Source: Sarcomyxa edulis (Eukaryota > Basidiomycota > Agaricomycetes > Agaricales > Mycenaceae). From it: a stretch of DNA of 64,000 nucleotides. Shown here piece by piece: positions 19,598 to 38,900 of this stretch (positions within the stretch are counted from its first letter, which is position 1; every line of letters starts with the position of its first letter). A program made the translations under genes and the position numbers. The stretch spans positions 434,001 through 498,000 of the forward strand of contig QUOL01000019.1 of assembly GCA_009761415.1 (NCBI GenBank). The letters run 5' to 3'. The notes under the pieces were generated by a model. The model was not told the origin of the DNA and ran no database searches. It worked only from the letters and a program-made list of their open reading frames with translations.

Positions 19598-19607
19598 AAG
19601 CCCCCCT
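19598..19607 (-). other. Polypurine tract of outer element
   Basis: The minus strand reads AGGGGGGCTT immediately before the 3' LTR, the normal position of the plus-strand primer. It fixes the element's orientation together with the ORFs. Confidence 0.65.
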
Positions 19608-19623
19608 AGGTTCCGTGGACGAC

Positions 19624-22299
19624 CTATTTCGGAATTTCGGGAACTTTCAACCCCCTCAGTGGTATCCTATTCCATCCGTAGCCGTATGCTGACATGAGAT
19701 CGTCGTTAGCGCTCGCAAAGTCCGAGGGCGCGGGGACAAACAACGGAGAATTCTGTCCTCTGTTGGCCTGTCTAAGCACGCCATGCCAACCACTCTCGGT
19801 CTTGGGTTCAACTCTCCCGGCTTCCAGCTTCTCGTAGATCTCCTCGAAGACGAATCGCTCAGTGATTTCGTTCCAGTCCCCATGATAATGTTGCAAGAAT
19901 TTCCTGAGAATGCCCTCAGTAGGGTAGAACCATTTGTCGACGTCCGGACCTCCAAACTTGACGTATCCGTACAAAGCGCTGATTTCTTCTCGGGAGACGC
20001 TGTCAGTCTGAGCAAAGGTCATATCTTCTTTGTCTACCTGGCCGCGATGGTGTAGAGTAACTTGCACGGAGGGACCGTTCATAAATTGACGAACTAAATC
20101 GTCGCCTCCGTAACGTCTGGCAATCCACGAAAGGGGACCGCCCATGCCGATAAAGGCCCGTGCGTGGGGTCTCTTGAGAATGTCTAGGACCTGCGCCCTG
20201 TAACGATCGTACAAGTCCTCGCCGCCCACTCCCCATTCCAAAGGGGCGGTTTTGAAACCTAAAGTGTAGTATATCTCGGCAGCGTGATCCAGCGGAGTAA
20301 GGATAGCTGGTCGGAATAGAGGGATATCTTGGGGTTTCACAAAGATGAAGAATTGGTGACCCCTCTCGATGGAACGAGTAAGGGCGTCTTTAATGGACTC
20401 GATGCCCGGAGCCATATTTGCTAGCAACCGCATCATCACAGCAGTGTCGCGATCCTTGACGATTAGAATGCCTTTATCAATCAGCTCAAGACTCCACCGA
20501 CACGATTTGGGGACCGCGCTGACGCTCCCGGGATTGTGGAGAACTATGAACTTCTCGTACCATTGGGCGAGCGTAGATCGAGTATCGTCCAGCTTGCGCA
20601 CGTTCTCGCGCCTGCTTTCTTCCTCTTGGCCGTGCAGCTCCATCCGGTCCTCGCTATCCATGCTAGAGTCTATCGACCTGGCCCGAAATCCTATCCGCCT
20701 TTCCAGACTGCTTTCCCCTACTCTAGTCGTTTCAGCCATGTCGCGAACCCAAGTCGATGGTGAGTAGGCTTGGTTGTAGTTACTTCGGTAACGAGTGAAC
20801 TCGCGAGAGTCGTCGTGAGTTTGAACGCGGCGAGAATTCGAATTCTCGTAAGGCTTTGGTCGAGTAACTTTCTTTCCCCGGCTGCCTTCCTTCCTCGGAT
20901 AGGGCCGACCACGGTCCTGTAAGCTTGTGGACGCTCCTGAGACAGACGCCTCATCGTCGACTATCATGTCATCCGGATGAGATGGAGGGTTGATCGCGGA
21001 CGGCGCTTGTCCTGCCGGGAGTCGGGGTTTCCTTGATGGCACTCCGCGAAAATCTGGCTTCTGAATTTCTCGTCCAGTCTCGACGTCGATAATCTGTCCT
21101 GGCAGAGGAGCGTAGCGACACTTGTACGTCTCCCTCAGCTTGAAAGAATCGTCTTCATTCTCTGTGAAAGTCAAGATTTCGTCTCCCTCAGCCACGCGAG
21201 GGCGGAACATCCAGAACATCTTGCGGTGCTCCCTAGGGTCGTTTAATATGCGGTAATGGTAAAACTTCTCCGCTCGCTCAACGGCCCACTCGGTGGTGAG
21301 TTCTCGTATCCTCCAGCCTTCAAAGTGCATGATGAATCCGTGGTACTTGGGGCCGTTCTCCAGAACTTCATCCTGGCCGGTGTTCCACTCCTGGACCTTG
21401 GCTTGGTTGAATTCGTCGTGATCCAACAGATAAGGAAAGTCGATTAGCATGTTTGGTACGTCCTCTGCATGAAGCTCCACGGCGTCCGGGATTGATTCTA
21501 AGTGTTCGGTGTAACGACGTAGAAACTGAGGATTATAACGGGCAAATCGAGGTTCTCTGGCTTCGACCTCCGTCCACACATAGTAGACCGGTACGTCATT
21601 AGCGATCAAATGTCCGATATTAATTTCCCTCCAATCCTTAGCCAGGTTGACGATAACCCCTCGTTTCTTTCGGTTCCACAAACCCAATCCAATGATGTCC
21701 TCCGTCGTCTGTGGCTTCAGTCCATCGGTCCAGTCAACTGCACTTTCGATCCACCAACCTAAGAATCCTCGAGCATCCAGGACGCATCGTTTCACCGCGG
21801 CTCCTACGATTTCCACGTCGTGTTCTTCGGAATACTCCCTGGTCAGGATGTTGAAGTCTGGGAAATAGGGTATAGGAGACGTTTTGCCGTAGGCTGTTCC
21901 ATGCCTTATCGCTAAACAGTATCTCTGTAGATGAATGATAGTCTGGCGGGCTCGTATCACCCAATGATTCGGTAGGACAAACGACTTTCCGTTCTGCACT
22001 GGCTCGACAGATCGGTTCAGATCGTGATACCATGCATCCGGATCGTCGTCGTCGACGGCGATCCAAGCCCCCCAGTGATGAGAGAAAAGGTACCATAGAG
22101 CTTCTTTCGTCCACTCGTATTCCAGAAGTATGCCCGCCGTCCCATACGCCACAGGGTATCTGTGTGAATGCTTGAATGCGAGAATTCCGAGAGGTAGGAT
22201 CTGACTGGAGGGGTTTAGACAGACCACTGTCGTTCCTTCAATTTCTGAGATTTCGGGCTTTGGGATGAGTCCCAGGGAGTTGCGAAATAGCGCCTCCAT
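19624..22299 (-). CDS. Env-position accessory ORF of outer element (891 aa), function unknown
   Basis: A single uninterrupted frame of 891 codons from 22299 to 19624, lying between pol and the 3' LTR. It is not an enzyme family I recognise. The first ~400 residues look globular and rich in Trp and Tyr (for example GAWIAVDDDDPDAWYHDL and VPVYYVWTEVEAREPRFARY). A low-complexity linker rich in Arg, Ser and Pro follows at about 430-590, then a second globular part. There is no obvious signal peptide, furin-like site or C-terminal membrane anchor, so it does not look like a classical envelope protein. Similar long third ORFs occur in other mushroom gypsy elements (from memory, not checked). Frame preservation over 2.7 kb argues that it is under selection or very recent. 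Confidence 0.7.
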   Translation of the reverse strand: MEALFRNSLGLIPKPEISEIEGTTVVCLNPSSQILPLGILAFKHSHRYPVAYGTAGILLEYEWTKEALWYLFSHHWGAWIAVDDDDPDAWYHDLNRSVEPVQNGKSFVLPNHWVIRARQTIIHLQRYCLAIRHGTAYGKTSPIPYFPDFNILTREYSEEHDVEIVGAAVKRCVLDARGFLGWWIESAVDWTDGLKPQTTEDIIGLGLWNRKKRGVIVNLAKDWREINIGHLIANDVPVYYVWTEVEAREPRFARYNPQFLRRYTEHLESIPDAVELHAEDVPNMLIDFPYLLDHDEFNQAKVQEWNTGQDEVLENGPKYHGFIMHFEGWRIRELTTEWAVERAEKFYHYRILNDPREHRKMFWMFRPRVAEGDEILTFTENEDDSFKLRETYKCRYAPLPGQIIDVETGREIQKPDFRGVPSRKPRLPAGQAPSAINPPSHPDDMIVDDEASVSGASTSLQDRGRPYPRKEGSRGKKVTRPKPYENSNSRRVQTHDDSREFTRYRSNYNQAYSPSTWVRDMAETTRVGESSLERRIGFRARSIDSSMDSEDRMELHGQEEESRRENVRKLDDTRSTLAQWYEKFIVLHNPGSVSAVPKSCRWSLELIDKGILIVKDRDTAVMMRLLANMAPGIESIKDALTRSIERGHQFFIFVKPQDIPLFRPAILTPLDHAAEIYYTLGFKTAPLEWGVGGEDLYDRYRAQVLDILKRPHARAFIGMGGPLSWIARRYGGDDLVRQFMNGPSVQVTLHHRGQVDKEDMTFAQTDSVSREEISALYGYVKFGGPDVDKWFYPTEGILRKFLQHYHGDWNEITERFVFEEIYEKLEAGRVEPKTESGWHGVLRQANRGQNSPLFVPAPSDFASANDDLMSAYGYGWNRIPLRGLKVPEIPK

Positions 22300-22701
22300 C
22301 TCTCAGCAGATCTGGTCCAACAGAAAATCCTTGGAGAACCAGTCTACTCACAATGAGGGGCAATCCGGATCTCCGTGAATGCTGCCCTCACCGTTGACGA
22401 GTACTGAGGGAGTAGAGGCAGAAAGAGGGGAGTGGCGGATCGTTCATCAGCCAGCTTTCTAGATAGCCATATTTGGGGAACAAAGGGATAAGCCACGCGA
22501 CGGTCCAGAACACCCTAACGGGCATCGCTCCGAACGGTCCGGGTCCGGGTTTGGAATAGTGGACGTCCGCATCGTAGAAATGAGAATCGAAAATAATCAA
22601 AAATAATGGAAAAATAGACGAGAGGGAGTAACATAAGTACATAAAGAAAAGAGATAAGAAAATTAGGAGATGGAATGAATAAGACTAGTATTGAAAGGAA
22701 G

Positions 22702-22706
<5 letters not shown>

Positions 22707-22772
<66 letters not shown>

Positions 22773-22782
22773 GAGAGAAAGA
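22707..22782. repeat. (GA)28 microsatellite with GAAA-interrupted tail
   Basis: 56 bp of perfect GA repeats (22707-22762), then an imperfect GAAAGAGA tail. It lies between the pol stop and the start of the env-position ORF. On the element's sense strand it is a TC tract. Confidence 0.95.
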
Positions 22783-22812
22783 ACACGCTCGTACAGTTTT
22801 CCTCCGAGCGAT

Positions 22813-24275
22813 TCAGAGGTTGTGGTTCCGTTTGTAACGATTCAGAACTTCGGGTGCGTTCTTCAAGTGGTAGGCCGGTTCCCAAGTGTCAAATTGAGGC
22901 CCATAGTTGGCCCATCGGACCAGGTAGAGGAGTTTTTTCGATCTTTTGTCCCATCTGTGACCAACTATTTTCTCGACTTCCTCTTCTGGATCCTCAGGTT
23001 TTTCTTCCCTGGTCTCCGGCAGTACAGTACGTTCACCGAGATCTGGAGTCGTTTCTTCGTATTTCCTCAGGTGCTCTATGTTAAACACCGGCGAGCCGGG
23101 ATACTTGTTACTTAGCCGCAACCGAAATACCTTGGGATTGATCTTCTGGATAACTTCGAAAGGCCCAATCCACCGTTGCGTAAGTTTGACCCCTTCGCCT
23201 TTTGATTCCAACCACTCAAGTGTATGTGGGTTGACTAACACTTTGCTGCCTTCTCGGATTTCAGGTGAAGGACGTCGTCCCTTGTTGTAACCCTTCGCCT
23301 GACTCTCCTGAGCCTTTGCGATCGCCAGACGAGCGTCTTCTCGGTGCATTGCGACGGTTTCTAAGAATTCCCGAGAATCGTCCCTCAAGTTGTAGTCTCG
23401 CAGCGGCTGTCGATCCTTTGGAAATAGAAAGTCCAGAGGCTCCTTCGGATGGAAACCGTACAGTAGGAAATAGGGACTCATCCCTGTGGTCTGATGAATG
23501 GAGCTATTGTACGCAAACTCGAGGAGGTGAAGCCACTCTACCCACGAAGCTTTATTCTTCCCCACATATGCTCTAAGGACCGTTTCGAGGTATTTATTCA
23601 CGATCTCAGTCTGTCCGTCGTGTTGAGGATGGTGCGCCGATGACAGTGCCATCCGCGTCTTCAAGAATTTGGCCACTTCCTTCCAAAAGTCCGATGTCCA
23701 CCGTGGATCACGGTCCGTCACAATGCTATCCGGGAGGCCAAAACGACACGCTACATTCTTCACGAATAAACGGGCGAATTCCTCAGATTTCAAAGCCGTA
23801 GTCGTCGGAATAAATTGTGCATGCTTGGTGAGTCGGTCTACCACCACGTAAATGGCATTATATTCCCCTGACCAGGGCAGGTTAACTATGAAATCCATAG
23901 AGATCGATTCATATGGCCTCGAAGGGATCGGATTCGGTATGAGAAACCCGTACTTGTTGAAATTGGTCCACTTGATTTTCTGACAGACATCACAGGTCGA
24001 ACAAAAACGAACGATGTCTGCTTTCATACGTCTCCAATAAAACTTCCGGCTCAATTTCGTCCATAACTTTTCCGGCCCCGCGTGTGCAGTTGCAAAAGGA
24101 CTCTCGTGGGCTTCTCGGAGGAGTTGGTTTCTCTGGTTAGAAGGTACGCATAGTCGCGGCTGATAATCGGCGTCCCTGAAGTACATAAGTCCCTTCTCGT
24201 CTTTGAAGAATCGTCGTCCCGGGATCCACTCATCATCAGGGCCTATGGGGCTCTTCCATAAAGGAGCTAGCACGG
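22813..24275 (-). pseudogene. Outer element pol, 3' part: integrase and chromodomain
   Basis: In element direction the frame emerges from the inner insertion at 24275 and ends at 22813. It shows the end of the RNase H-integrase linker, an HHCC zinc finger (a HESPFATAH His pair, then CSTCDVC), and the DDE core with D in MDFIVNLP, D in VTDRDPRW and E in DGQTEIVN. A GPF/Y-like region and a C-terminal chromodomain follow, with KKLLYLVRWANYG and FDTWEP. Chromodomains target chromoviruses to marked chromatin. It is separated from the gag-RT part by 11.7 kb and has no start codon of its own; an ATG at 24351 lies inside the inner LTR. Confidence 0.9.
24272..24275. repeat. 4-bp target duplication ACGG of inner element, left copy
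   Basis: ACGG directly precedes the inner left LTR and directly follows the inner right LTR at 35957-35960. The outer pol frame is consistent with removing the insert plus one copy. Confidence 0.8.
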
Positions 24276-25265
24276 TGTGAGGATGCCAGCATCCCCAGCC
24301 AAGGAATTGACAACTATACAACAACCTACTCTTATGCGACTCCCCAGACATAGCTAACTACAGAGACACTGGTGGTATTACCACAAACGACTTACTTTTC
24401 GAATGACCGGACACTGAAAGACACCAAGTACCCGCTACTTGACGGTTCCTCCCCGAAAGCGGCCTCTTCATCCACTCACGAAACGCTAACCCGCCTTCGG
24501 TCACGTCTCAGAACGTTTTGGAATACCTGAAATCACACACGAACAACTTCTCCGAAGGAAATCTACCGCCAGAACCCAATTCCCTATCGTCGTTTCACCT
24601 GACCGAAGGCCCAATGTACTCGATCACCTCTCCGCAGCCCCCTAGATCCTTCGGACAGATCCCAAATCGTTTCAGCAGGCTCCCTTTCACCTCTAGAAGA
24701 CCTCATCGAGAGATACTTCACCGACAAAACATTGCCACCAGTCGACATACCGCCAACGTGATGCTTGCTGCCCTGAGCTGTTCTTCCTATCAAATCGGAC
24801 ATATTCCCTTTACATTGTGATCTCAATTCACACCTTTCCATGCATCTGGACGCCTCGTTAAGACCTCCGTCCACCCTGACCAAGTGGTGCTACGGAATAT
24901 TCTTCCCTCTGTGCTTATCACATGACACAGCACTTGTAAGCGAGGTATCGCCCGCTAACAAAGACACTACAGGTCTCCGCCTAGCAACCCACATCAAATT
25001 CACTCTTCTCGGACAACTTTGGCCGTCGCATCTTGGAAAAATCTATCGGAAGCTCCCCATCATCCTGCTCACTCGGACATGTTTCATCCCTTCACAAATT
25101 CACCTTGCAACGCTTTCAGAGAACACCTCAGGCCCTAACCTTTCACACTGAGCGAGGTTCGGACACATCTAAACCAATACCGGATCTGTTTCATCATTGG
25201 AGATCTCGGGGACCTTGGGATGGCACTCGGGGTGAAGAATTAGGCAAGGACAGGGAAGGAATTCA

Positions 25266-25273
25266 TATATAAA
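25266..25273 (+). promoter_or_regulatory. TATA box of inner LTR
   Basis: TATATAAA on the plus strand, repeated in the right LTR at 35199-35206. Its orientation agrees with the primer-binding site and polypurine tract, and marks the likely genomic-RNA promoter. Confidence 0.6.
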
Positions 25274-25489
25274 GTAGGATAGGACATGGAGAACGGTAGA
25301 TAGAACCAGTGTGGACGAGAACCAGAGGAACATACCCGAATCGACCAACTACCCAGTTACTCTCTATAGGAATTCTATCTCTTTCTCATACTTCTGAAAC
25401 CGAGACAAGGAACGATTACAGGAGTCGGTCAAAACAAGAGAAAAAGGACTTGATTCAGTCGGCAGTACCACTCCCGGAGCAAAGGAAGC

Positions 25490-25828
25490 TCTCCGAAATC
25501 AGTCCAGAGCTGTCCGAAACCCTCGAAGCTCTCCGAAATCAGTTCAGAGGTGTCCGAAACCTTCGATAGCTCTCCGAAGACGTTTTATAGCTATACGAAG
25601 CATCGGTCAGCTCACCAAAAGCTGTCCGAGGCCCTCGTAGGTTCTCCAAGATCGAACTTATAGCTGTCCGAAGCCCTCGATAGCTCTCCGAAGACGTTTT
25701 ATAAGCCGTCCGAAGCATCGATCAGCTCTCCGAAAGCTGTCCGAGGCCTTCGTAGGTTTTCCAAGAACGAACCTATAGCTGTCCGAAGCCTCTAAACGGC
25801 CTACCGAGAACGATCCTACAAGTCCGAA
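25490..25828. repeat. TCCGA-box array and 114-bp tandem duplication inside inner LTR
   Basis: Thirteen copies of TCCGA (mostly CTCCGAA or TGTCCGAA) lie within about 340 bp downstream of the TATA box. Part of the array is a degenerate tandem duplication with a 114-bp period (25564-25677 and 25678-25791). The same array is present in the right LTR. Confidence 0.85.
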
Positions 25829-26025
25829 GCTTACCTTACACCTCATCATCCCATACCCACCTCACCACCGTTTTACGAACACATTATCCAAACACAAGTC
25901 ACTGGGCATTAGGATTTCTCGCTACGTAAAATCCCCTCCGAGAAAACGTCACCTTACCCCCTAGAGGCGAACAACAGTTAGGAGTCTAGCCCATCTACTC
26001 CTAGCACCGCAGTCCTCATCACAAC

Positions 26026-26043
26026 TGGAGCCCACCGCGAGGG
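26026..26043 (+). other. Candidate primer-binding site of inner element
   Basis: TGGAGCCCACCGCGAGGG begins 2 nt after the left LTR; TGG pairs with the CCA end of a tRNA. The further match does not fit a standard acceptor/T-arm spacing perfectly, so the priming tRNA is not identified. Confidence 0.55.
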
Positions 26044-26376
26044 GGATTGAAAGCCTCTTCTTAGGCCTTCCAAATACCGCGATTATCCGTTAAAAATATC
26101 CATAAAACGACCTCTCCAAAGAAACTGCTTCGTTCACCGTTACCACCGTCAATAAATCACAGATGGGTCTCATCCCAGACGCTTCCTTCCAATCATAGAC
26201 ATCACGCATAAAAGGAACTACTTCTCTACCCTATCCACAGACATTACTTCCAACGACTATATTAAAACGAATATACGTCTCTCAGTCTCCGAAATTAAAA
26301 GAAACGGAATCGTGGATTATTTTCTTATAAAAATACATAGGAAACAAAAATATTACTTTCAATCCGAACTACTATC

Positions 26377-28111
26377 TTACGCGGTATCGGCCTCCTCCTC
26401 CTCAAAAATAAACCCGTACTGGTCCTCAACTTGCGATATTGCAGCGTCGATAACACCCGACAACTGATCACGGATGACCGGGGCGAGCTTACCGAAAACC
26501 TCGACACCAGCAGCGCCGTCAAGAATCCTGACCTTCAAGCCGTCAACCATTGACTTCCACTTTCCTCGGCGACCTGTGGCCTGTTGACCCTGGGAGACGG
26601 ACGGGGGATTGACCGAGGAAGGTCCAGATGGCTCGACAATACCCGTATCATCGAAACCTTCGAAATGACTCGCGAACTCTCGCTGAAGAACGGTCTTGCG
26701 GGTTTCCGGAATACGCATCTCACCAAAAGAAATTGGAATCTCGGACAAGGTATCACTGGGTGCCGACTCCGCAGCATGGTGACCACCAACGAGCTTGGGT
26801 ACTACGAATAAAGAAAGCAGTAAATTTAAGGGAAACGCGATTCCTGGAACAAAACGCACCACGTATTTTCAAAGACGCAGACTGGGATCCTTCGACAACA
26901 ACCGGTGAAGTCTCGCGAGCCTTTCCTTTCCCTTTACCTTTCGAAGGCATTTCTTGGCGCTCGCTGATAGTCGAAGGGCCAGGGAGACTGTTGGAAGTTT
27001 CGAAGACGGGAGCGGTTTTCTTTGGGGCAATAACGATTTCCCCCAGTTGAATCGCTTGGGAAAGGTCAAGGAGGCCTTCGCCCTCGTGTATATCACAGCC
27101 GATCCTTCGAGCAAAACACCGGTCGCAGGCGTGGCTACGATGCCCGTTGCAGGTCACGTTGTTCTTAATGCACGCGCTACAACGCCAGTCCTGTAAAGAA
27201 AGATATGGGGCTTAGAAAGAGTTAGAACAAAAGGGAGGAAACGTACTAGGTGACGGATGAAATAAGGCTGATGGGCCTTTAGGATACGACCTGCTCTCTT
27301 TGAAGAAATACCCGGGGGTTTCTTGATAGGAACTACGCGAATTTTGGAAGGACCTATAACTTCGACGCGAGGACGAACGATGTCGGTACTAAACTCCTCC
27401 CTTGTGCGCTTGACTCCGCGAGGATGCCTGACCCTCACTTCAGGAGACGATACGTCTCCCTCGGAACTCTCGGGGTTGACCGCGGAACCAATGGTTGCTG
27501 GGGGTGGATCTGTCGCGTGAACTGTGGCGACGCCGCTGGGACCGGAATCGGTATCATCGGCTGAAAAGAATAAATCGAAATCAGTCAAAGGAGGACGGGA
27601 AAGCGGGAACTGACTTACCAAGCTCATCGATCTCGTCCTCGGACAAGTTGGGAAACTCGGAAGTCCCCAGTATCTTTTCAAAGCTACCGTACCACGGAGC
27701 AGGAGTCTCTTCCTTAGCAGGAAGGAAGAGGGGAGTGCGACGAGCGGGGAGATTATATTCGAGCGCCTCTAAGAAAAAGTCGGGAATGACGACCAGCTGG
27801 CGAACAAAGCCAATGATATCGTCATCCAAGGCAGGGAAATCGTCGAAAGCTGGAGGAAACGGAGGCGTCCACCCAATGTGTAGGAAAGCCACACAAGCTG
27901 AGTGGAGCTCCTCGCGACTTCTCGCGGTAGCCGGACGGAGCGCCTCAATCAGACCATACTCGGCGCCTGAAATCCTCCGTGTCGACCTCATGGAGTCCGA
28001 AACCTGTGCTGGAACCTTGGTGGTAGGAAGGCCGCCGGATAGCGCGAGGTTGAAGGCCTCAGAGAACGTAAAATCGGGAGCGACTTGTGACGTAGACGAC
28101 GATAGAGGCAT
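26377..28111 (-). CDS. Zn2Cys6-like cysteine-cluster protein carried by inner element
   Basis: A spliced gene reading from 28111 to 26377. Exon 1 (28111-27619) is globular and ends LSEDEIDELG. Exon 2 (about 27560-27250) is Pro/Ser-rich and ends HQPYFIRHL. Exon 3 (27193-26880) holds six cysteines spaced C-x2-C-x6-C-x7-C-x2-C-x6-C (CSAC...C...CDRC...C), the spacing of fungal Zn(II)2Cys6 clusters, with RR in the second loop. A later exon ends EEEEADTA. Introns have GT...AG borders and the reading is colinear. Zn2Cys6 clusters usually bind CGG-type DNA triplets. Here the cluster is internal rather than N-terminal and I see no fungal transcription-factor middle domain, so DNA binding is only a possibility. 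It is antisense to the element that carries it. Confidence 0.6.
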
Positions 28112-28929
28112 GGGAATAGTCTTAGGAGGTAATGGGAGAGGTGATCGAGACGCGTTTGGTGCTGGAAAAATGGTGGGCAGAGGGCGATTGAGAATTGATC
28201 GATAAAGTTCGAAAGTGATTCCATACCTCGGCGATCTCGTTTCGGGTATCTCCAGGCACGTGTCGATCTAATCGCGCTTCGCATCTCGCGGTGGCACCAA
28301 ACAAAGGAGAGGCCGATGCCAAACACCCACTGGTAACCGAAGGATCGGACAGCCTAAAGGAGATCGGGCTCGATCACATCGAAAAAACGAAGAAAGTCGA
28401 GACCGGAGAACAACAATCATGGAGATAAAAATCGTCGGAGCAAGCATATCCAGGCGAACAAGCACGATTGAAAATGAAATAATGGAAGTCATCGAACATA
28501 AAAAGTTAAGGGTTAAACGGTACCCAGGAAGTCGATAAGAAGAACGAACGATTAAAGCAAGCACGAAACGGACAAGTTTGCGCCATGGGAGTCATAAACC
28601 CATAACGGATAGAGAGCGACGGCTCTCCTGTACACAGTGACGAAATACTGCGAAAAGACCACGGACGACAAACGATCGAAAGAAATTGGAAGAAAACGAC
28701 TATGCGGGGTTCGGAGACGGTAGATCTGGCTGGCCAGCGGATCTACTGACGCAGACCGAACCCAATTATGCGCTGATATGATAAAAGTATGCAACTCACG
28801 ACGTTTTACAGATTTACAAGGAGACCGAGACGCTGGGTCTCACACTATGCAAAATTATGAACGAATTATGCGCCTGTTATCAGGCATTTATTTTACAAGA
28901 GACAAGGAATCGGAAACTCATCGGACGGT
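28112..28929. other. Spacer between inner-element genes
   Basis: About 820 bp between the Zn2Cys6-like gene start and the next gene's stop. It should hold the Zn2Cys6-like gene's promoter; no clear TATA box and no convincing coding frame were seen. Confidence 0.4.
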
Positions 28930-29865
28930 CTACAGAATGGTAGTATCAGGTACCGCTCCAGCTCCTCGACGATTAGCCCTTGCCCCTCCGCGACCTCTCC
29001 CACGCGTCGCAGCGTTCCGAGGGTCTACCTGTCCGAAAGCTCCAGGGCCGAAATGAACTTGGTGGAGACCTCCGAGACGAGGATAGGGAACGTCTCCGTG
29101 AAGACGGACCTCTTCAAAGCCCTCTTTCACGGGAAACCTCGCGACGAAGGGGACAAGAGGATATTGAGGAGCAGGAAGAATAGGATTGGGAATGAAAGCC
29201 GCCCGCAATCTGAGTAGGTCGTTAACTTGCTGCTGCTTCATTTCGGGAAGCACGCCGTACACGTTGTACGCATCGGACGACTCAAATCCATCGAAATCCA
29301 GGGCAGTTCCGACGTATCCGACCTAGAAAAAGACGAAAAGAAATAAATCAACGAAGGATGAGAACCAAGAAATATGTAAAACGCGCCTGGGCAACCATCT
29401 CGCTCTTCACCGACGACAAAAGATACCCAACGTTCCTAACGTTGACCGCAACGTAGTCCCCCTCGAAACCAAAGTTCTTCAGAAAGAACTCGAGCATGGC
29501 GACGGTAGTGGTGGCTTGAGCGGGAATTGGAATGGTATCCCAAGAGCCTGATTTAATGGCCTCGGAGGCTCGGAGTTTCATAGCTTGATGCTGGACGGAC
29601 GATGTTGAAAGAGGAACGATGAAGGAAAAACAAGCGAGCCGCTTACTACGTAATTGACGATCCGGGTGAGGAGGGTCCTGACCCAGAGCCTTTCCTCGAG
29701 AGGAACGTCCGTCGGACACCTCCCATTTACGGAGAGATGAACGATGCCTAGGAGGCTACGAATTGACCGAGACCAGATGGTGGTCGGAGACCTCTCATTT
29801 TCGAGGTCGGGATCCTGGGGATTTTCGGGAAAGCGATTTGCAGACAAACGGAGAATAAAGGACAT
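28930..29865 (-). CDS. Inner-element family protein E (paralog array)
   Basis: Start at 29865, with three exons. Exon 1 has the divergent first block (RSIRSLLGIVHLSV) and ends LTRIVNY before a GTAGTAAG donor. Exon 2 begins HQAMKLRASEAIKSGSW, has IPIPAQ and then the second block ML-F-FLKNFGFEGDYVAVNV and LLSSVKSEM. Exon 3 begins VGYVGTALDFDGFES and ends in an Arg/Gly-rich RGRGRGGARANRRG tail, which is RGG-like and suggests RNA binding. The second intron appears to use a GC donor. No known domain was recognised. A TATA box lies 52 bp upstream of the ATG. Confidence 0.55.
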
Positions 29866-29916
29866 CGTTGATGGAACTTTACTGACTTAAGGATCAGAGC
29901 AAACGATTTGGGGAGG

Positions 29917-29924
29917 TTTATATA
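29917..29924 (-). promoter_or_regulatory. TATA box for gene E
   Basis: TATATAAA on the minus strand, 52 bp before the ATG at 29865. Confidence 0.5.
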
Positions 29925-29966
29925 TGCAGACTACAATAAGTGGCATATGATTCTGGGAGCGTTACT

Positions 29967-30685
29967 TTACTCCGTCGTTTCCTCCTCCGACCCTGGCCAG
30001 TCCTCCGCGTCGCTATATCCTGCACCTTCGGACTCCCCCTCGACTACGACAACGCGCTTAGGTACGACCCTTTCGAGGAGATCGAGACGGATCGATCTGG
30101 TCATCGCGCTTTCCAACGCGGCATCCCCGGGCTTCTCGTACTCTGGCCAATCGAAGGCATCTTCAGCCGACGCGTAAGCCGCCAGGGCGCGTATGCTAAG
30201 CTCGGTAAGAGCTCGGACGGCTTCGACCTCCCAATGAATGGGGCTTGCTGGCTGAATTCGGACAGCCCGACAAATCAAGCGCAAATGGCTAATCGTTCTA
30301 TTCATCTCGGACGGAATCACGTATAAACGCCTGTCCTGCTTGTTCAGCTCCTGCCACTGGCTGTGGAAATGGACCTGTTACCGATCAAGTGAAAACCCGT
30401 TAAACAATGAGATCGCTAAGGGTCGAGTTTAGACCAACGTACCGCGAGGAGCAACACGATTTGCGCATTGCAGTAGTAGGGAACCCTCTCGCGACCAGTT
30501 AAAGCTACGAAGTAGCCATCGGGCCCGAGTTCACGGAATATAAAATCGGCAACGAGGCCGACAGCGGGGCGCAGGAGGCACCTGAGATAGTGAATCATTC
30601 CGTCACGATCAAGGATATCGAACGTTGCTGCCTCTTGGGCAAGAGTGTTCAAAAGGACTTGGTGTAGGGGTTCCATAATTTTCAT
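29967..30685 (-). CDS. Inner-element family protein D (paralog array)
   Basis: Start at 30685. Exon 1 gives MKIMEPLHQVLLNTLAQEA and then the first family block YLRCLLRPAVGLVADFIF, ending at a GTACGT donor near 30441. Exon 2 begins VHFHSQWQELNKQDRRLY and continues with the family signature IPSE(MNR), then a helical stretch ending FDWPEYEKPG, and finishes with an acidic tail (DWPGSEEETTE). The [F/Y]LRxx[LI]RP[MA]V block and the IPSE...EYP order are shared with genes A-C. No known domain was recognised. Confidence 0.55.
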
Positions 30686-30725
30686 GGGCTCTGTGGTGAC
30701 CTGAACGGAGGAATTGATTCACCCT

Positions 30726-30732
30726 CTTTATA
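30726..30732 (-). promoter_or_regulatory. TATA box for gene D
   Basis: TATAAAG on the minus strand, about 41 bp before the ATG at 30685. Confidence 0.5.
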
Positions 30733-30770
30733 CTAAAAATATCGCGCTATTCAGCTATCGGACACCCCTT

Positions 30771-31366
30771 CTACTTGCCCGTACCCTCCCCTGCCAACCG
30801 TATCACGAACTCCGGAAATTCCACGGCAACTGCCTCTCGGTGCATTACAGGGACGATAGACCAAAGGAACTCCTTCGTTAAATCCTTCCTCTTCACAAGT
30901 ACATCTTCATCGTACCCGAGCTCAACTCCGTGATGGATAAGGAATAGCTGCACCATGCTTGCGAGGCGCAACGCTTCTGACGGAACCACGGCCTCGTCTC
31001 CTCGGCCAATTGCCGTCACCCTATCCCTAAACCGTAGAATGGCATCCTAGAAGACGTAAGGTTAACACTCCGAAGCTCACCGAGTGAACCACGGACGCCT
31101 ACCAAATGATCCAACACGATGCGGAACCAGCCTTTCGTCTCGCTCCATATGATCGGTTCAACGGTGTCTCTCGGGGAACTCGTTATAAGATAAGCCGCGT
31201 ACCCCCGCTCGACGATCTCCACCATAGGGCGGAGGCGGAATCGAAGGAAGTTTGTAAAGCCCTCGGTAGGAGCGAAATCCCCGGCAAGAACTTCGGGAGG
31301 ATGGGCATACGACAAAAACTCGTCTCGGAGAGCTTGAGTAAACGATGAACTAACGACATGCGACAT
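30771..31366 (-). CDS. Inner-element family protein C (paralog array)
   Basis: Start at 31366. Exon 1 gives MSHVVSSSFTQALRDEFLSY and the clearest first block, EGFTNFLRFRLRPMVEIVERGY, then FRIVLDHLV before a donor near 31104. Exon 2 begins DAILRFRDRVTAI and has the second signature VPSEALR, then HHGVELGYDED, and ends with EFPEFVIRLAGEG. It matches gene B in both blocks and in the terminal [EF][YF]PEF motif. Function unknown; probably a small helical protein of about 170 residues. Confidence 0.55.
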
Positions 31367-32428
31367 TTTGGCTGGAATAACGATGGCTATCCTGCGCCAG
31401 CTGGCGTTCTTTATACCTCATCGGACTTAGGACTGACGTCTCGGACCGATAAGAGGTGTCCGAACGGACTCCGTGCAGCCACTGTTAACCGTTGGATTTT
31501 CCGGACCGTGCCTTATCAGAAGCAGTAAAGACGCATGTTCTTCGGTATAGATGCTCACGGAACGATTGCGAATGCCACATGCAAAAGAACACGAGCTGGC
31601 CGCCACGTCGCGCCGCTACCCTGGGACCATCTTTTCGACTATTGTCGCAGGTCCTTGCCTCACCTGATACACTTCGCCGTGTCTCGTTCCTTCGCAAAGA
31701 TTTCGCAAGATCGCGGTCACATCACCCGCACACGTATTAACCCGCACAGTCTCAACTGCGCCGTAAGAACAACGACGATCAGGACGCAAGCCACCTCGAT
31801 CTAAACGGCCATGACTTCATGAAGCCACTGGCGCTTGACGGCTGTCGGCTTTGAGCGCTGTAGAAATGCAACTGCATCATCTTGAAGAAGAGAACAGCAT
31901 CTTGCGCCGGCCGAGTTATTGAACGGGACGAGAAGATCATCCTGACATCGCATATCGGCGAGGCTACGGAAGAACGAAATGATGACCAGGCCACTGAGCG
32001 ATATAGCGAAATTGTAAAGGAGAAAAGCTCTGAAAGCATTAATAACCTCTCTCCGTTCTCATCTCACTCGCCTCTCCTCTGAACTTTCCTCTCATCAAGA
32101 GCCGCTGACGGAGTTACGAACTGTCCGCGATTCAAATGTCTGCGCACAGCGGGTGGAATCATCGGACATCGGTACCCTTTATAAAGGAGGTTGGGAGGCT
32201 GCCCGAGATAGTTGTTGCCCTCCGGACTGACAGTGCATTCCATAAACTACAAGATCTCTGAACACGGCACGCGAAAGGAGTGTTTACCCATTAAAGTACC
32301 AACGACGACAAAAACCCCCTCGGTCACATCCAGGAAAGCTTCCCCGCTACGCGTGTGTTCTGAAATGCGAATTTCCGACTATTAGTATCCCTCTGAGGGG
32401 CCCAAAGAACGAGACCGACGGCGCCTGC
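31367..32428. other. Long spacer in inner element
   Basis: About 1.06 kb. It holds the gene C promoter, a cluster of CGG/CCGA-type motifs at about 31420-31475 (tcggac, tcggacc, gtccgaacgg) and a palindromic TTTATAAA near 32180 that could serve either strand. No convincing gene was found. Confidence 0.4.
31409..31415 (-). promoter_or_regulatory. TATA box for gene C
   Basis: TATAAAG on the minus strand, 43 bp before the ATG at 31366. Confidence 0.5.
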
Positions 32429-33013
32429 TTACCAGAACACCAGGTCCTCAAATTCGGGATACTCCTTTGCCCCGCCAGTCAATGAAGCGTTAACGTCGGC
32501 CTCATCTTTTAGTGACTGAAGCATTTCCCTCCTCTGACCGACGCTGCTGAGGGCCCAGTCCCCGTGAAATCCGACCTTGTCATAAACGATAAGACTGAAC
32601 TCCATCATACGGGATACCTCTGAAGGAATTTTAAATTCGGCGGCGTTGGCATCGGTCCTGGCCCGCTGACGGTATGCAACGATGAGTTCCTGCGCAGAAG
32701 GAATTTTTAGTATCTCTGCGTTGCCCCGCTGAAAAACGGTGGAAGCCCGTACAACGTTCTCGACGAAAAACCGCATAAGCCGCCTCGACAGCGTATACTG
32801 CCCGATAACGCTATCGGTGTCATCGGGAAATGCTGTCACCCTATGGGGAAGCGTCGCCTGGATGACACCGAACATCATACGAAGGCGTTTGCGGAAGAAT
32901 CCATCGAAGCCCTCGTGCGGATAGAAGACGGGTCGAATGAAGGACGGGACGTTCAGCGTCATGAAGTAGTCGCAGAGTCTCTCGCGAGCCATTTGCATAC
33001 TGCGGGCAGGCAT
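32429..33013 (-). CDS. Inner-element family protein B (paralog array)
   Basis: The first ATG is at 33013 (MPARSMQMARERLC). The frame is open slightly further upstream, but only with a GTG. It is an intronless version of the family: first block HEGFDGFFRKRLRMMFGVI, then the second block IPSEVSRMMEFSLIVYDKVGFHGDW and RREMLQSLKDEADV, ending EYPEFEDLVFW. The frame ends at a TAA that overlaps a possible GTAAGC donor, so a further exon cannot be excluded. It has both blocks in one frame and is the best anchor for aligning the other four. No known domain was recognised. Confidence 0.58.
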   Translation of the reverse strand: MPARSMQMARERLCDYFMTLNVPSFIRPVFYPHEGFDGFFRKRLRMMFGVIQATLPHRVTAFPDDTDSVIGQYTLSRRLMRFFVENVVRASTVFQRGNAEILKIPSAQELIVAYRQRARTDANAAEFKIPSEVSRMMEFSLIVYDKVGFHGDWALSSVGQRREMLQSLKDEADVNASLTGGAKEYPEFEDLVFW

Positions 33014-33042
33014 TTCGATTTTCAACACGAAAGGACTCGTCG

Positions 33043-33049
33043 TTTATAT
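33043..33049 (-). promoter_or_regulatory. TATA-like box for gene B
   Basis: ATATAAA on the minus strand, about 30 bp before the ATG at 33013. Confidence 0.4.
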
Positions 33050-33108
33050 GTATATGATGACTGCATGCCCTCGATCACCTCTCCGAACCCTTCCCTCTTC
33101 TTGCCGCC

Positions 33109-34049
33109 TCATGCCCCCGACAAATTGTTTAGTCCCTGTTCGATAATCGCCGCCCCGCCAATCAAACCGTTCCTCTCCTCTTCGGATAACGTCTCCAAAA
33201 GCAGGCGAAATGCCCCGTGTGTTGCCAAGCTTGCGAGTGGCTGGACTGTACCTCTCCGATCAGCTCGTTGCCGCACCGCTAAAGTGTCAGAATTCTTACC
33301 GGACAAGGCCCTTTCTACCTCGGCCACCTCCATTTCTTCGTCCCCGTCGTCCGTTGCAATACTTATGACGGATATGCCTTCGTCTTCGTTGTTAGCCGGA
33401 TTTTCTTCCCCCTCGAGGTTGTTGCCCCTGTCCGTACTAATCGTACCATCTCGATGTACCCTGGGACCGCTGTATGGATGCTTCTTCAACACGGCATGCG
33501 CATGGAACCGACCACGCGGGTCCGCCTCGATGTAATCGAAAGCGACGCCGAATGTCGATCGGCGGGCGTATTCTTCTATGAAGTACAAGATAACGTCGAT
33601 CTTATGTGCCTCGTCCTCGTCCTGATCCCCGGAAAACCCTACGACGTGGACGCACCGCTGCACCTGGTAAACGGCGGTCACTGCTTCCTTGGGAAACGGC
33701 TCCGTGGTATCGTCCATGCACCTCCCCTTCAGTACCCATCTAAGTCTGAGCATGAATACCTTAACCTTCGCAATTAGCACGGACCCCCCCTGAAAGGCGC
33801 ACACGCACTCACCATGTGCTGGCACAAGATTTTAACGTGCTTTCTCAACGTGTATACACCGTGACTCGAGAACTCCGGAAGGAGAACGTCCGCCACAGCA
33901 TCTTGAAAAATGCAGCTGACGACTAGGTGAACCATGGGACGGATATTGTTACGCAGGTATCCGAGGAAAGTTGCCATCGTAATATCGCCATCTATCCCGT
34001 CCAGATCGAGGCAGCGCGTAAAGAAGAGTTCTTTTGCTATGGGATCCAT
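33109..34049 (-). CDS. Inner-element family protein A (paralog array)
   Basis: Start at 34049. Exon 1 gives MDPIAKELFFTRCLDLDGID and the first block FLGYLRNNIRPMVHLVVSCIF, ending CQHM at a GTGAGTGC donor near 33812. Exon 2 carries FPKEAVTAVYQVQRCV and the second block VVGFSGDQDEDE, then YFIEEYARRSTFGVAFDY. A long acidic region (EDEGISVISIATDDGDEEME) and a C-terminal helical part follow. It is the longest member of the five-gene array and the one nearest the polypurine tract. No known domain was recognised. Confidence 0.55.
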
Positions 34050-34094
34050 TTGGCTTGTTGCTTTCAGGAAAGCCCTGGCTGTCTTGACCTTGGA

Positions 34095-34101
34095 ATTTAT
34101 A
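34095..34101 (-). promoter_or_regulatory. TATA box for gene A
   Basis: TATAAAT on the minus strand, 46 bp before the ATG at 34049. Confidence 0.45.
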
Positions 34102-34199
34102 GGTCCTTGGCCGGTCGTCCTTGCCCTGTTTCGGTCACGGACACGCTGTTGTGTTTGCCCTCCGGATGATCGACCGGGGACGGTCGATATTTAAAAGTT

Positions 34200-34208
34200 A
34201 GGAGGAAG
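34200..34208 (+). other. Polypurine tract of inner element
   Basis: AGGAGGAAG ends exactly where the right LTR begins, on the plus strand. The minus strand at the same place shows no TGG primer-binding site. This fixes the inner element's orientation as plus. Confidence 0.7.
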
Positions 34209-35956
34209 TGTGAGGATGCCAGCATCCCCAGCCAAGGAATCGACAACTATACAACAACCTACTCTTATGCGACTCCCCAGACATAGCTAACTACAGAGAC
34301 ACTGGTGGTATTACCACAAACGACTTACTTTTCGAATGACCGGACACTGAAAGACACCAAGTACCCGCTACTTGACGGTTCCTCCCCGAAAGCGGCCTCT
34401 TCATCCACTCACGAAACGCTAACCCGCCTTCGGTCACGTCTCAGAACGTTTTGGAATACCTGAAATCACACACGAACAACTTCTCCGAAGGAAATCTACC
34501 GCCAGAACCCAATTCCCTATCGTCGTTTCACCTGACCGAAGGCCCAATGTACTCGATCACCTCTCCGCAGCCCCCTAGATCCTTCGGACAGATCCCAAAT
34601 CGTTTCAGCAGGCTCCCTTTCACCTCTAGAAGACCTCATCGAGAGATACTTCACCGACAAAACATTGCCACCAGTCGACATACCGCCAACGTGATGCTTG
34701 CTGCCCTGAGCTGTTCTTCCTATCAAATCGGACATATTCCCTTTACATTGTGATCTCAATTCACACCTTTCCATGCATCTGGACGCCTCGTTAAGACCTC
34801 CGTCCACCCTGACCAAGTGGTGCTACGGAATATTCTTCCCTCTGTGCTTATCACATGACACAGCACTTGTAAGCGAGGTATCGCCCGCTAACAAAGACAC
34901 TACAGGTCTCCGCCTAGCAACCCACATCAAATTCACTCTTCTCGGACAACTTTGGCCGTCGCATCTTGGAAAAATCTATCGGAAGCTCCCCATCATCCTG
35001 CTCACTCGGACATGTTTCATCCCTTCACAAATTCACCTTGCAACGCTTTCAGAGAACACCTCAGGCCCTAACCTTTCACACTGAGCGAGGTTCGGACACA
35101 TCTAAACCAATACCGGATCTGTTTCATCATTGGAGATCTCGGGGACCTTGGGATGGCACTCGGGGTGAAGAATTAGGCAAGGACAGGGAAGGAATTCATA
35201 TATAAAGTAGGATAGGACATGGAGAACGGTAGATAGAACCAGTGTGGACGAGAACCAGAGGAACATACCCGAATCGACCAACTACCCAGTTACTCTCTAT
35301 AGGAATTCTATCTCTTTCTCATACTTCTGAAACCGAGACAAGGAACGATTACAGGAGTCGGTCAAAACAAGAGAAAAAGGACTTGATTCAGTCGGCAGTA
35401 CCACTCCCGGAGCAAAGGAAGCTCTCCGAAATCAGTCCAGAGCTGTCCGAAACCCTCGAAGCTCTCCGAAATCAGTTCAGAGGTGTCCGAAACCTTCGAT
35501 AGCTCTCCGAAGACGTTTTATAGCTATACGAAGCATCGGTCAGCTCACCAAAAGCTGTCCGAGGCCCTCGTAGGTTCTCCAAGATCGAACTTATAGCTGT
35601 CCGAAGCCCTCGATAGCTCTCCGAAGACGTTTTATAAGCCGTCCGAAGCATCGATCAGCTCTCCGAAAGCTGTCCGAGGCCTTCGTAGGTTTTCCAAGAA
35701 CGAACCTATAGCTGTCCGAAGCCTCTAAACGGCCTACCGAGAACGATCCTACAAGTCCGAAGCTTACCTTACACCTCATCATCCCATACCCACCTCACCA
35801 CCGTTTTACGAACACATTATCCAAACACAAGTCACTGGGCATTAGGATTTCTTGCTACGTAAAATCCCCTCCGAGAAAACGTCACCTTACCCCCTAGAGG
35901 CGAACAACAGTTAGGAGTCTAGCCCATCTACTCCTAGCACCGCAGTCCTCATCACA
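34209..35956 (+). repeat. Inner element LTR, right copy (3' LTR)
   Basis: 1,748 bp, the same length as the left copy, with TG...CA ends. It differs from the left copy at two or more positions read by eye. Confidence 0.94.
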
Positions 35957-35960
35957 ACGG
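35957..35960. repeat. 4-bp target duplication ACGG of inner element, right copy
   Basis: ACGG immediately after the inner right LTR, matching 24272-24275. A 5-bp duplication is not supported: the fifth bases differ on both sides. Confidence 0.8.
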
Positions 35961-38900
35961 GATCATTCTGATATCCCTTCACGAATTCGAGAACGAGTCG
36001 CTCTTCCATATGAACATGAATACTAGGGGGAGGATTCAACGCCCCCCAGTATTCAGCTGAAGTACGGTCTACGTTCGGATCAGATTGTCGGTCTTCTTCA
36101 GATTCCGTTGCTGCATCGTCATTGGCCGGTTTCGTAGCGTCTTCGCCCCCCAGACGTTCAGGATCGACAGCAGGATGGACGTCTTTACTTCGGCTACGCG
36201 TGACCGCCCATACCGACTTGACCTCCTCGAGGCAATCGTCAATGTCCCATGCCACGAAAGTGGCACGTTTGGCAGGCGCCGATTCCAATGCGGCCTCCTG
36301 TGCAGCAGCCAAATCGCCGTCCGTCACTATGGCGTCCAGAGGATCACGAGCTGGTGAAATGTGAGAAGGAGGTCCCCTCGGCAATCGCGATAAAGGATCT
36401 ACGTTCGAATGAACTCTCCCAGCTCTGTGGATGATTTCAAGATTATTGTAAGCCGCAAATACCGTTCCCCAGGCCGCCAACCGTCGATTAGAATTCTCAT
36501 ACGTGCGAGCCCATTGTAGCGCCGAATGATCCGTCACCAACAGCACCTTCTCCCCCTCTATGAAGGGTTGGAATTTCACTAGACCTTCCTTCGCCGCCAA
36601 CGCTTCCCGTTCTGTCGTCGAATACCGAGTTTCAGCCGACTTAAACGTACGCGACCAGTATCCAATCACCCGTTCGACGTGCACGATGGACTCCTCGAAA
36701 GTAGCCCCCCATACATCGTCTTTGGGAGAGTCAGGGATAGTGTTGGAGTATGTCGTCGTCAACTTCGGAGGGGGTACCCCGGCGTTATACGCGTCCAGCA
36801 ATCTCTTGTACGTCTTCGTGCCCTTCAGATCAGAAACTTTGATCGGTTGGATTTGTTGTAGAGCACATCCCAGAGCCACATCTGAAGCATCCGTATACAA
36901 CCGATACGGCAGGCCCATGATTGGGTGTCCTAACACTGGAGCCGTGCGCAGGGCGTCCTTAGCTGCTTCGAAAGCTCGTTCCTGCTGAGCGCCCCATTCC
37001 CACTTGGCATCCTTTCGCAATAGTTGAAACAGAGGCGAACATATGTCTGCATAATAGGGAATAAAGGCGGAGAAGTATACGATCATCCCCAAGAAGGTCT
37101 GCAATTGCGACAGCTTGCGCGGCCTTTCCAGCTCCAAAATGGCTCGCACCTTTTCGAAGTGAGTCGATAGACCTAACCGAGAGACTTTATGCCCCAGCAA
37201 CAAGATTGACGAGTAAAACAGGTGGCATTTGCTCGGTGATAGGGTGATTCCCGCTTTCTCGATTGCCTCCAGCACCTGGTCCAAGTGTTCGATATGCTCC
37301 TCGTAAGTCTTGGAATATATCACGATGTCATCAATGTAAACGAGGCAGAACAGCCATAGATACGGGGCCAAAACCGACTGCATCACACGTTGGAAGATAG
37401 ACGGGCCGTTCCGAAGACCAAATGGCATTCGGCGAAACTGGAAAAGTCCTCGGTGAGTCCTGAAAGCCGTTTTCTCCACATGCTCGGGATCCATTTCCAG
37501 TTGTGTAAACCCCGACAGGGCGTCAAGCGACGACAGTACTTGCGCACCCGAGAGAGATGACAATATCTCAGACTGCCGTGGAATCGGAAACTCGTCCGGT
37601 ATCGTTACTGCGTTTAGTTTCCGATAGTCGACGCAAAATCTTGCCTTGCCGTTGCGGTACGCTATGACTACCGGTGCACTCCATGGACTGATGGACGGTT
37701 CTATCACACCTTGTTCAAACCACTTGTCCAGCTGTTCCTCAATCACCAAACGTTTGGCCGGAGAAGTCCCGTACATGGGTACCGCAATAGGTTGCTGCCC
37801 ATCCACAGTTCTGATATGTACTCTGGCCGGATGATGGCCTAGTCGGCCGTCAAAGCCAAATGCCCCGGCTCTCTTGTGCAGCATCGCCCAAGCCTTATCT
37901 TTCAAATTGTCAGGCAACGATCCGACATCTATCAACTCCTCCATCTTGGACGACGGATATATAGTGGGGTCCGGCATTGCTGCAGTTTTTGGGCCATATT
38001 CCTCTTCCGTTTCTTCAGAATCGGGCTTGTGCAATCCCGTCGACATAGTCGCTTCGATAACGGCAGAAGCTGTCGCGGCCATGCGATGTAGAGCTTCGAG
38101 ATGAAATAGTTCGGTCGGGCGATCGAAATACAAGGACGGGTCTTGGATAGTCCCGATTATCTCCCCTCGATGGATCATCCGAGGGTGATCGCTCGGGTTT
38201 GATACCGGTACGTATGGATTTTTCGACGTTATGAGGGTGTTCGGCACTACCAGGTGAGTGTGATCAACGTTGGGCAACAGGTTTTTCTCCACGAACCATT
38301 CAGCGTCGGCTCCGAAATCACCTTCCACCAAAATGGAGACGGTATGATGTGGTTTGACGTGATACGTCCTTGAGGCCCTAATGCAACGCGACTCGGTCTC
38401 CATTGCCACTTTTCTTCGATGACGCCGTGCTTTGTCTCGCCTATGCTGCTTTGCTCTGGCGAACTTCTCCACGGACTGAACACTCTTCCTCAGCCGCCCG
38501 AAGTCGCTTGTTCTGGCGACCCCCTCAGCTTTGACCGTGTAAGGTGAATTGGAGAATCGAATCGTCGTTCCCTCGTCGACTCGTCGGACGACCGAAACTT
38601 CGTAGGTGAGCTGGTAATCCTCCCCCAACAATATAGGCACGGACATCCCAGGGACTACGTAAGCTTCAGCTTCCGTCTCTAGGACGCACCCGTCTTCTGT
38701 CTCCATGAAAATTGGTATTCGGACAAATCCACTCAACTGTGTTCCCTTTTCAGTTAGCTGCCAAAGCTTCATGCGGACACCTTGTCGGATAGGAGGCGGG
38801 GACGACAACGTATTGTAGTAATCGAGAGATATGAGGGTTATGTCGGCGCACGAGTCCAATCGAAGGTCAGTTATCGGATTGTTCAAATTCCCAACTCTTC

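What the first reader, a model, noticed from the sequence alone, without database searches (positions are those of the whole stretch)
26024..34208. An LTR element without pol that carries a six-gene array antisense to itself
Seen: paired 1,748-bp LTRs, PBS-like TGG after the left LTR, purine tract before the right LTR and LTR TATA box all give plus orientation. All six supported genes between them read on the minus strand, and no gag, PR, RT or IN motif is visible. Known: antisense ORFs exist in some plant LTR elements (Grande, Retand, RIRE2), usually one per element. A multigene antisense cargo in a fungal LARD-like element is, to my knowledge, not described. Inference: the element may replicate cargo genes that are expressed independently, with sense genomic RNA and antisense mRNAs able to pair.
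Basis: partly seen in the sequence, partly recalled or inferred. Interest (0 to 1): 0.9.

Follow-up and report, generated by a model that had tools for sequence, protein, structure and literature searches.

The report
Retrotransposon carrying six antisense genes
A fungus carries a family of jumping genes whose genome also holds a row of six or seven ordinary, intron-containing protein genes written backwards on the opposite strand, and selection has kept those genes intact even in copies that have lost the genes for jumping.

Summary
24276-35956 is a young LTR element (LTRs differ at 2 of 1748 bases, TSD ACGG, tRNA-matched PBS, PPT) inserted into another Ty3/gypsy element. Its 8.2-kb interior has no detectable pol, a faint gag relic, and six minus-strand genes.

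The own genome shows what it is: a non-autonomous member of a family (F1). The autonomous copy read in full (17.5 kb) carries sense gag-pol plus the same array antisense between pol and the 3' LTR. A second family (F2, 20.6 kb, 2090-bp LTRs) has the collinear array plus one more gene. Orthologues G2-G6 are 31-52% identical, with the first intron at the same place.

G1 is open with all introns in 11 of 13 copies examined (75-100% DNA identity; dN/dS 0.10-0.18). G2-G6 show 101 synonymous and 36 nonsynonymous variants (pN/pS 0.11). Variation falls on third positions of the antisense frame. TATA boxes lie 35-59 nt upstream of five of six starts.

One or two antisense ORFs per element are known (Grande, Retand, RIRE2, Botrytis Boty). 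My searches found no report of an antisense array of spliced, largely paralogous genes kept in gag-pol-less copies. Expression and function are untested. Verdict: new variant of a known kind, high interest.

The parts
24276..26023 (+). 5' LTR (1748 bp, TGTGAGG...CATCACA) with TATATAAA at about 25266
   Evidence: 40 matches scored of 108 candidates, 97-100% identity, in the own genome
24272..24275 (.). target-site duplication ACGG, left copy
35957..35960 (.). target-site duplication ACGG, right copy
26026..26043 (+). primer binding site, complementary to 15 encoded 3' bases plus CCA of an own-genome tRNA-like gene (Lys CTT by eye)
   Evidence: not called by ARAGORN
26047..26193 (+). degraded relic of the gag N-terminus
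   Evidence: tblastn with F1 gag, 45% over 55 residues, E 0.005
26377..28111 (-). G1, 520 aa; exons 28111-27616, 27557-27247, 27190-26860, 26801-26377; Zn2Cys6-like CX2CX6CX7CX2CX6C
   Evidence: 11 of 13 copies examined open with the three introns, dN/dS 0.10-0.18
28930..29865 (-). G2, 271 aa; exons 29865-29647, 29590-29387 (GC-AG intron after it), 29322-28930; Arg-Gly-rich C-terminus; TATA at 29924
   Evidence: F2 orthologue z 129; relatives P0121-P0124
29967..30685 (-). G3, 216 aa; exons 30685-30443, 30374-29967; TATA at 30732
30771..31366 (-). G4, 179 aa; exons 31366-31103, 31046-30771; TATA at 31415
31420..32428 (-). gap in F1 where F2 has gene Gx; a TATA-like site is present at 32183
   Evidence: no convincing Gx similarity (best E 0.26)
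32429..33013 (-). G5, 173 aa; exons 33013-32753, 32689-32429; TACTAA branch site; TATA at 33048
33109..34049 (-). G6, 295 aa; exons 34049-33813, 33759-33109; TATA at 34101
34200..34208 (+). purine tract AGGAGGAAG
   Evidence: same place in the C1 copy
34209..35956 (+). 3' LTR
19118..43267 (-). host element: chromovirus (480-bp identical LTRs; RT-RNase H ORF 41502-35911, integrase+chromodomain ORF 24357-22813) split by the insertion

Best explanation
24276-35956 is a recently inserted, non-autonomous member of a fungal Ty3/gypsy lineage. The lineage keeps, antisense between pol and the 3' LTR, a collinear accessory module: one Zn-cluster-like gene (G1) and a set of small spliced genes, largely one multiplied family (G2-G6, plus Gx in F2). 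Shown: anatomy, a gag-pol-bearing form and gag-pol-less forms, a second family with the same order, purifying selection on the antisense proteins. Inferred: the LTR drives the sense genomic RNA, which is copied with gag-pol supplied in trans by autonomous copies; module genes are transcribed from the integrated DNA by their own promoters. Because their introns are antisense to the genomic RNA they are not spliced out before reverse transcription, so spliced genes survive each round. The proteins probably act as accessory factors of the element (G1 as a nuclear DNA-binding regulator of LTR or array expression) rather than as passengers. Specific activities are unknown; an accessory role about 65%.
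For: Autonomous C1 copy: identical LTRs (0 of 1748), TSD GCGT, sense gag with protease, pol with RNase H and integrase zinc domain, antisense array 97.9% identical to the window's. G4: 31 copies of exon 1 without stops and 31 of exon 2 open over 91 residues; the one TAG reported at exon 2 is the splice acceptor by my reading. By G1 type, 15 autonomous-type copies plus 2 fragments and 15 window-type copies; gag-pol itself was read only in C1 and C12. G1: dN/dS 0.10-0.18 in 54 of 55 pairs, splice sites kept while introns diverge. G2-G6: 101 synonymous, 36 nonsynonymous variants, no stops. Changes sit at antisense third positions. F1/F2 orthologues on the diagonal, z 33-129, phase-0 first intron at the same place (aligned by eye). 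Five of six starts have a TATA box at 35-59 nt. G2 relatives in other datasets end at the same exon borders by eye.
Against: No RNA or protein data. G1's Zn cluster is below Pfam's cut-off (13.2 against 21 bits), and its F2 counterpart has a different second spacing (by eye). No Pfam family reaches its cut-off for G1-G6; no solved structure matches G2 (the others were not searched). G1 had no relative in one protein search, which scored 7995 candidates within length limits, and has no TATA box. Only 2 of 6 F2 starts have TATAWA. G2/G3, G3/G5 and G5/G6 show no pairwise similarity (z near 0), so common descent of all five rests partly on intron position. Two of 13 G1 copies are broken. The 274-aa plus ORF over G5/G6 stays open in C1 and is 182 aa in C12; at about 2% divergence that says little.
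Confidence: 0.82

Rival explanations
1. The array is host-beneficial cargo (a domesticated gene cluster riding on the element), so selection acts through the fungus rather than the element.
For: Module kept in copies without gag-pol: window, C6a, and C6b as far as it was read; own promoters.
Against: The matches listed in the own genome fall into the F1 or F2 identity classes, many near-identical copies each; none looks like a single-copy host gene. Same order in two families with different LTRs. Adjacency to an LTR was confirmed for 19 of 31 array copies.
Confidence: 0.15
2. The antisense transcripts, not the proteins, matter: RNA pairing with the genomic RNA tunes retrotransposition through small RNAs.
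For: Antisense geometry over the interior; proposed for plant antisense ORFs (PMC7264820, parts 1 and 2 of 3 read).
Against: Selection is on amino acids and splice sites; an RNA-only role does not need open frames. Both roles could coexist.
Confidence: 0.07
3. An unrelated mobile element or virus inserted antisense into an ancestral gypsy element and its genes are decaying remnants.
For: Explains the antisense block, own promoters and lack of homologues; a candidate for the origin.
Against: Not decaying: pN/pS 0.11 and conserved order across F1 and F2.
Confidence: 0.05
4. Chance antisense ORFs or an annotation artefact.
For: Long plus ORFs overlap (274 and 241 aa); the 274-aa one stays open in C1.
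Against: The 241-aa plus ORF gains stops in the other ten G1 copies compared; codon-position signal is antisense for G1-G6; introns conserved.
Confidence: 0.01

Closest known systems
Plant LTR elements with antisense ORFs between pol and 3' LTR (aORF-3R): Grande gene23, RIRE2, Retand TRP28, PvRetro13
   Same: Ty3/gypsy, antisense coding between pol and 3' LTR, own promoter in Grande, nuclear or DNA-binding role suggested; some Retand elements non-autonomous (PMC7264820, parts 1-2; PMC11963269, passages)
   Different: One or two antisense ORFs per element (Retand: 104 antisense ORFs; cluster number about 63, worked out from '37 of the clusters (59%)' in the passages). Here six to seven spliced genes, largely one family, no TRP28 match, in a fungus, collinear in two families
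Boty / brtn of Botrytis cinerea (BcGypsy1)
   Same: fungal gypsy element with an additional antisense gene (Zhao et al. 2011, seen only as cited in PMC7264820 and PMC8365987)
   Different: one antisense gene, ascomycete host; brtn sequence not compared here
LARD (large retrotransposon derivative)
   Same: LTRs, PBS, PPT, no pol, presumably mobilised in trans (definition recalled)
   Different: interior is coding and under selection, on the antisense strand
Antisense accessory genes of retroviruses (HTLV-1 HBZ)
   Same: antisense gene for a nuclear protein (PMC11963269, passages)
   Different: single, with an antisense promoter inside the 3' LTR (PMC7264820); here a gene array with internal TATA boxes
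Giant LTR elements with extra coding (Ogre, Burro)
   Same: size class of F2 (20.6 kb) and extra coding capacity (PMC6431247, passages)
   Different: the word antisense does not occur in that review

Membership tests
LTR retrotransposon | paired LTRs, TSD, PBS complementary to a tRNA, PPT | tested here: met
   9 of 9 F1 pairs tested have perfect 4-bp TSDs
Ty3/gypsy (Metaviridae-type) | gag, protease, RT, RNase H, integrase in that order, sense | tested here: met
   In sibling C1: gag-asp_proteas, RT_RNaseH, Integrase_H2C2 in order. RVT_1 and rve were not reported there at E 0.1; they are among the precomputed domains of several close relatives of its pol. Absent from the window copy
Non-autonomous derivative / LARD | cis signals kept, gag-pol missing, autonomous partner with the same LTR | tested here: met
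LARD | interior without coding function (recalled) | tested here: not met
   purifying selection on six antisense genes
[quoted passage not shown]
Retand lineage | antisense TRP28 (PF04195) protein | tested here: not met
   no such Pfam match among G1-G6
Boty/brtn | homology to brtn | not tested
   brtn sequence not held
Zn(II)2Cys6 transcription factors | CX2CX6CX5-12CX2CX6-8C binuclear cluster (spacing recalled) | tested here: inconclusive
   spacing met in 11 of 11 intact G1 copies; Pfam Zn_clus 13.2 bits, under cut-off 21
HBZ-like antisense regulator | antisense transcript expressed and acting on the sense promoter | not testable with these tools
   no expression data

The most novel reading that the evidence does not exclude
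These elements run a second, antisense genome: an ancient, collinear set of accessory genes with its own promoters and introns that each copy needs in cis or nearly so, since even gag-pol-less copies keep it. G1 exists as a pool of strongly diverged versions (dS up to about 1) swapped among copies whose LTRs and other genes are about 98% alike, as if it set which helper, host or sibling an element can work with.
Probability: 0.35. Interest if true: 0.92.

Novelty: new variant of a known kind. Interest (0 to 1): 0.82.

Why it matters
It indicates that an LTR retrotransposon can stably carry several spliced genes, because an antisense intron is invisible to splicing of the genomic RNA. It makes the open question of what antisense ORFs do directly testable: six to seven genes, two families, gag-pol-bearing and gag-pol-less copies with near-identical LTRs in one 36-Mb genome, and natural G1 variants to compare.

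Tried and rejected
Chance-ORF and plus-strand coding readings were rejected. A frameshift reading of G5 and G6 (A-run and G-run length differences between copies) was dropped because both runs lie in introns set by branch sites and by the F2 orthologues. My first G6 acceptor was moved 6 nt to fit F2. Homology between Gx and the F1 gap was looked for and not found (best E 0.26).

Protein search with G1: no hit. Viral-contig scan with F1 pol: none confirmed. Solved structures with the G2 alignment: none. Structure of G1 exon 1 without alignment: mean pLDDT 39, discarded. An exon-fragment alignment meant for a second fold was too poor and was not submitted. tRNA scan of the window and of two candidate loci: none; the tRNA was read by eye and has an apparent intron. 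Eight paper searches (I saw their listings) showed no multigene antisense array in an LTR element; listings were cut to the top rows and subscription journals are mostly not held.
Full report
Observation. The LTR pair is exact: 24276-26023 and 34209-35956, 1748 bp, two mismatches. Target duplication ACGG, PBS, purine tract and LTR TATA box all give plus orientation. The element sits inside a minus-strand chromovirus: an ORF with RT and RNase H at 41502-35911, integrase plus chromodomain at 24357-22813, identical 480-bp LTRs (Pfam named no gag or protease in it). Across the insertion point the chromovirus frame is continuous.

Genes. On the minus strand the interior encodes G1 (520 aa, three introns), G2 (271 aa, two introns) and G3, G4, G5, G6 (216, 179, 173, 295 aa, one intron each). 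The first intron of G2-G6 is in phase 0 at the corresponding place in all five (by eye on the alignment). Pairwise similarity is clear for G4/G5 (z 15.8), G2/G5 (7.5) and G2/G6 (5.4), weak (3.8-4.2) for G2/G4, G3/G4, G3/G6 and G4/G6, and absent for G2/G3, G3/G5 and G5/G6 (G6 there with the earlier acceptor). A TATAWA motif lies 35-59 nt upstream of the ATG of each of G2-G6. The minus strand of the interior holds seven such matches at six places; the sixth place, 32183, lies in the gap where F2 has an extra gene. G1 has none. In F2, two of the six starts tested (G4, G5) have TATAWA within 120 nt and the rest only variants.

Family F1. In the own genome (35.6 Mb, 40 contigs) 40 LTR matches at 97-100% were scored of 108 candidates. 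The G5-G6 stretch has 31 matches, 28 of them over the full query at 98-100%. Of the 31, 19 abut an LTR in that list; the other 12 have no adjacent LTR in the list. The copy at C1:2004806-2022287 is autonomous: identical LTRs, sense gag with aspartic protease, sense pol with RNase H and integrase zinc domain, then a diverged G1 and G2-G6 antisense. A second gag-pol-bearing copy, at C12, has another element inserted. The window copy differs from C1 by lacking gag-pol and by having another G1 version; from 28604 rightwards the two are 97.9% identical. By G1 type, 15 autonomous-type copies (plus two fragments) and 15 window-type copies were found; the presence of gag-pol in the rest of the former, and its absence from the rest of the latter beyond the window, C6a and C6b (read to 9.7 of about 11.7 kb), is inferred. 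Nine of nine F1 LTR pairs tested have perfect 4-bp duplications, each of the form NCGN.

Family F2. C12:984683-1005290 carries 2090-bp identical LTRs, sense gag and pol, and antisense G1', G2', G3', G4', Gx', G5', G6' in the same order. F1 and F2 orthologues score z 33-129 on the diagonal and at most 15.4 off it, at 47/153 to 116/222 identical residues. Eight or nine F2 loci exist in the genome. The F2 flank duplication is imperfect. G1 and G1' were matched by position and Zn motif only.

Selection. Thirteen G1 copies were examined, of 17 matches; the four not examined are three at 100% identity and one fragment. Eleven are open over the whole gene with all three introns bounded by GT or GC and AG; one is disrupted in exons 3-4 and one lacks exon 1. 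In one of the eleven (C34b) the aligned stretch ended before a stop codon. Of 55 pairs, 54 have dS above 0.05 and dN/dS 0.10-0.18, median 0.137, dS up to 1.06; the 55th is evidently C34a/C5, whose proteins are identical. For G2-G6, six copies (five for G5 and G6, one of these lacking the first 90 or so bases of G6) show 101 synonymous and 36 nonsynonymous variants and no stops (pN/pS 0.11; per gene 0.02-0.17; binomial p 2e-35, treating variants as independent). Substitutions in G1 fall 522, 482 and 1722 on antisense codon positions 1, 2 and 3; G2-G6 show the same bias; the overlapping 241-aa plus ORF gains stops in the other ten copies. The 274-aa plus ORF over G5/G6 is still open in C1 and shorter in C12, which at about 2% divergence is uninformative. 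The selected frames are therefore the antisense ones.

Mosaicism. G1 versions are 75-100% alike in DNA while LTRs and the rest of the array are about 98% alike. Two copies, C6a and C6b, share a nearly identical G1 protein N-terminus and then diverge. Versions of G1 are evidently older than the copies that carry them and are exchanged between elements; recombination during reverse transcription is the likely route (inference).

Mechanism. Shown are structure, conservation and selection. Inferred are transcription from internal promoters, trans-supply of gag-pol, and accessory function. The antisense placement explains how introns survive an RNA stage: the genomic RNA shows the splicing machinery only their complement. 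That gag-pol-less copies keep the array suggests that its products benefit the copy that encodes them, or the host; I favour the element.

Spread. F1 pol has 1892 relatives in the protein collection; among the 120 listed, at up to 93% identity, the named ones are from Leucocoprinus, Pleurotus, Rhodofomes and Candolleomyces (that these are Agaricomycetes is recalled). G2 relatives P0121-P0123 are 86-89% identical to F1 over 42-44% of the query, and P0124 (53%) resembles F2 by eye; their sequences change character at the same exon borders. Their host species are unknown. G1 had no hit in one search.

Known work. [quoted passage not shown] Retand regularly has antisense TRP28 ORFs (PMC11963269, passages). 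The brtn gene is cited in PMC8365987 (passages). Bdelloid LTR elements carry extra ORFs (PMC5408684, passages). A survey of fungal LTR elements has no occurrence of 'antisense' (PMC3248453, term search). My eight answered paper searches (listings seen) showed no multigene antisense array; the library is partial.

Noticed in passing
window 19624-22302 (-): 892-aa ORF of the outer chromovirus, same sense as its pol, downstream of the chromodomain, no Pfam match.
   Followed up: no
window 41333-42850 (-): 505-aa ORF overlapping the start of the outer RT-RNase H ORF, no Pfam match.
   Followed up: no
F1 insertion sites, own genome: Nine of nine 4-bp target duplications tested have a central CG (NCGN), suggesting a target preference.
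   Followed up: partly
window 25485-25790 and 35418-35723: LTRs contain internal repeats about 115 bp apart.
   Followed up: no
L052 1-1685: The F2 element at C12 lies beside an F1 gag frame that ends at its LTR, so it seems to have inserted into an F1 copy.
   Followed up: no
L041, L042 (C38:359989-379704): Two G1 copies lie between LTRs 18 kb apart whose outer flanks form one duplication CCGT.
   Followed up: no
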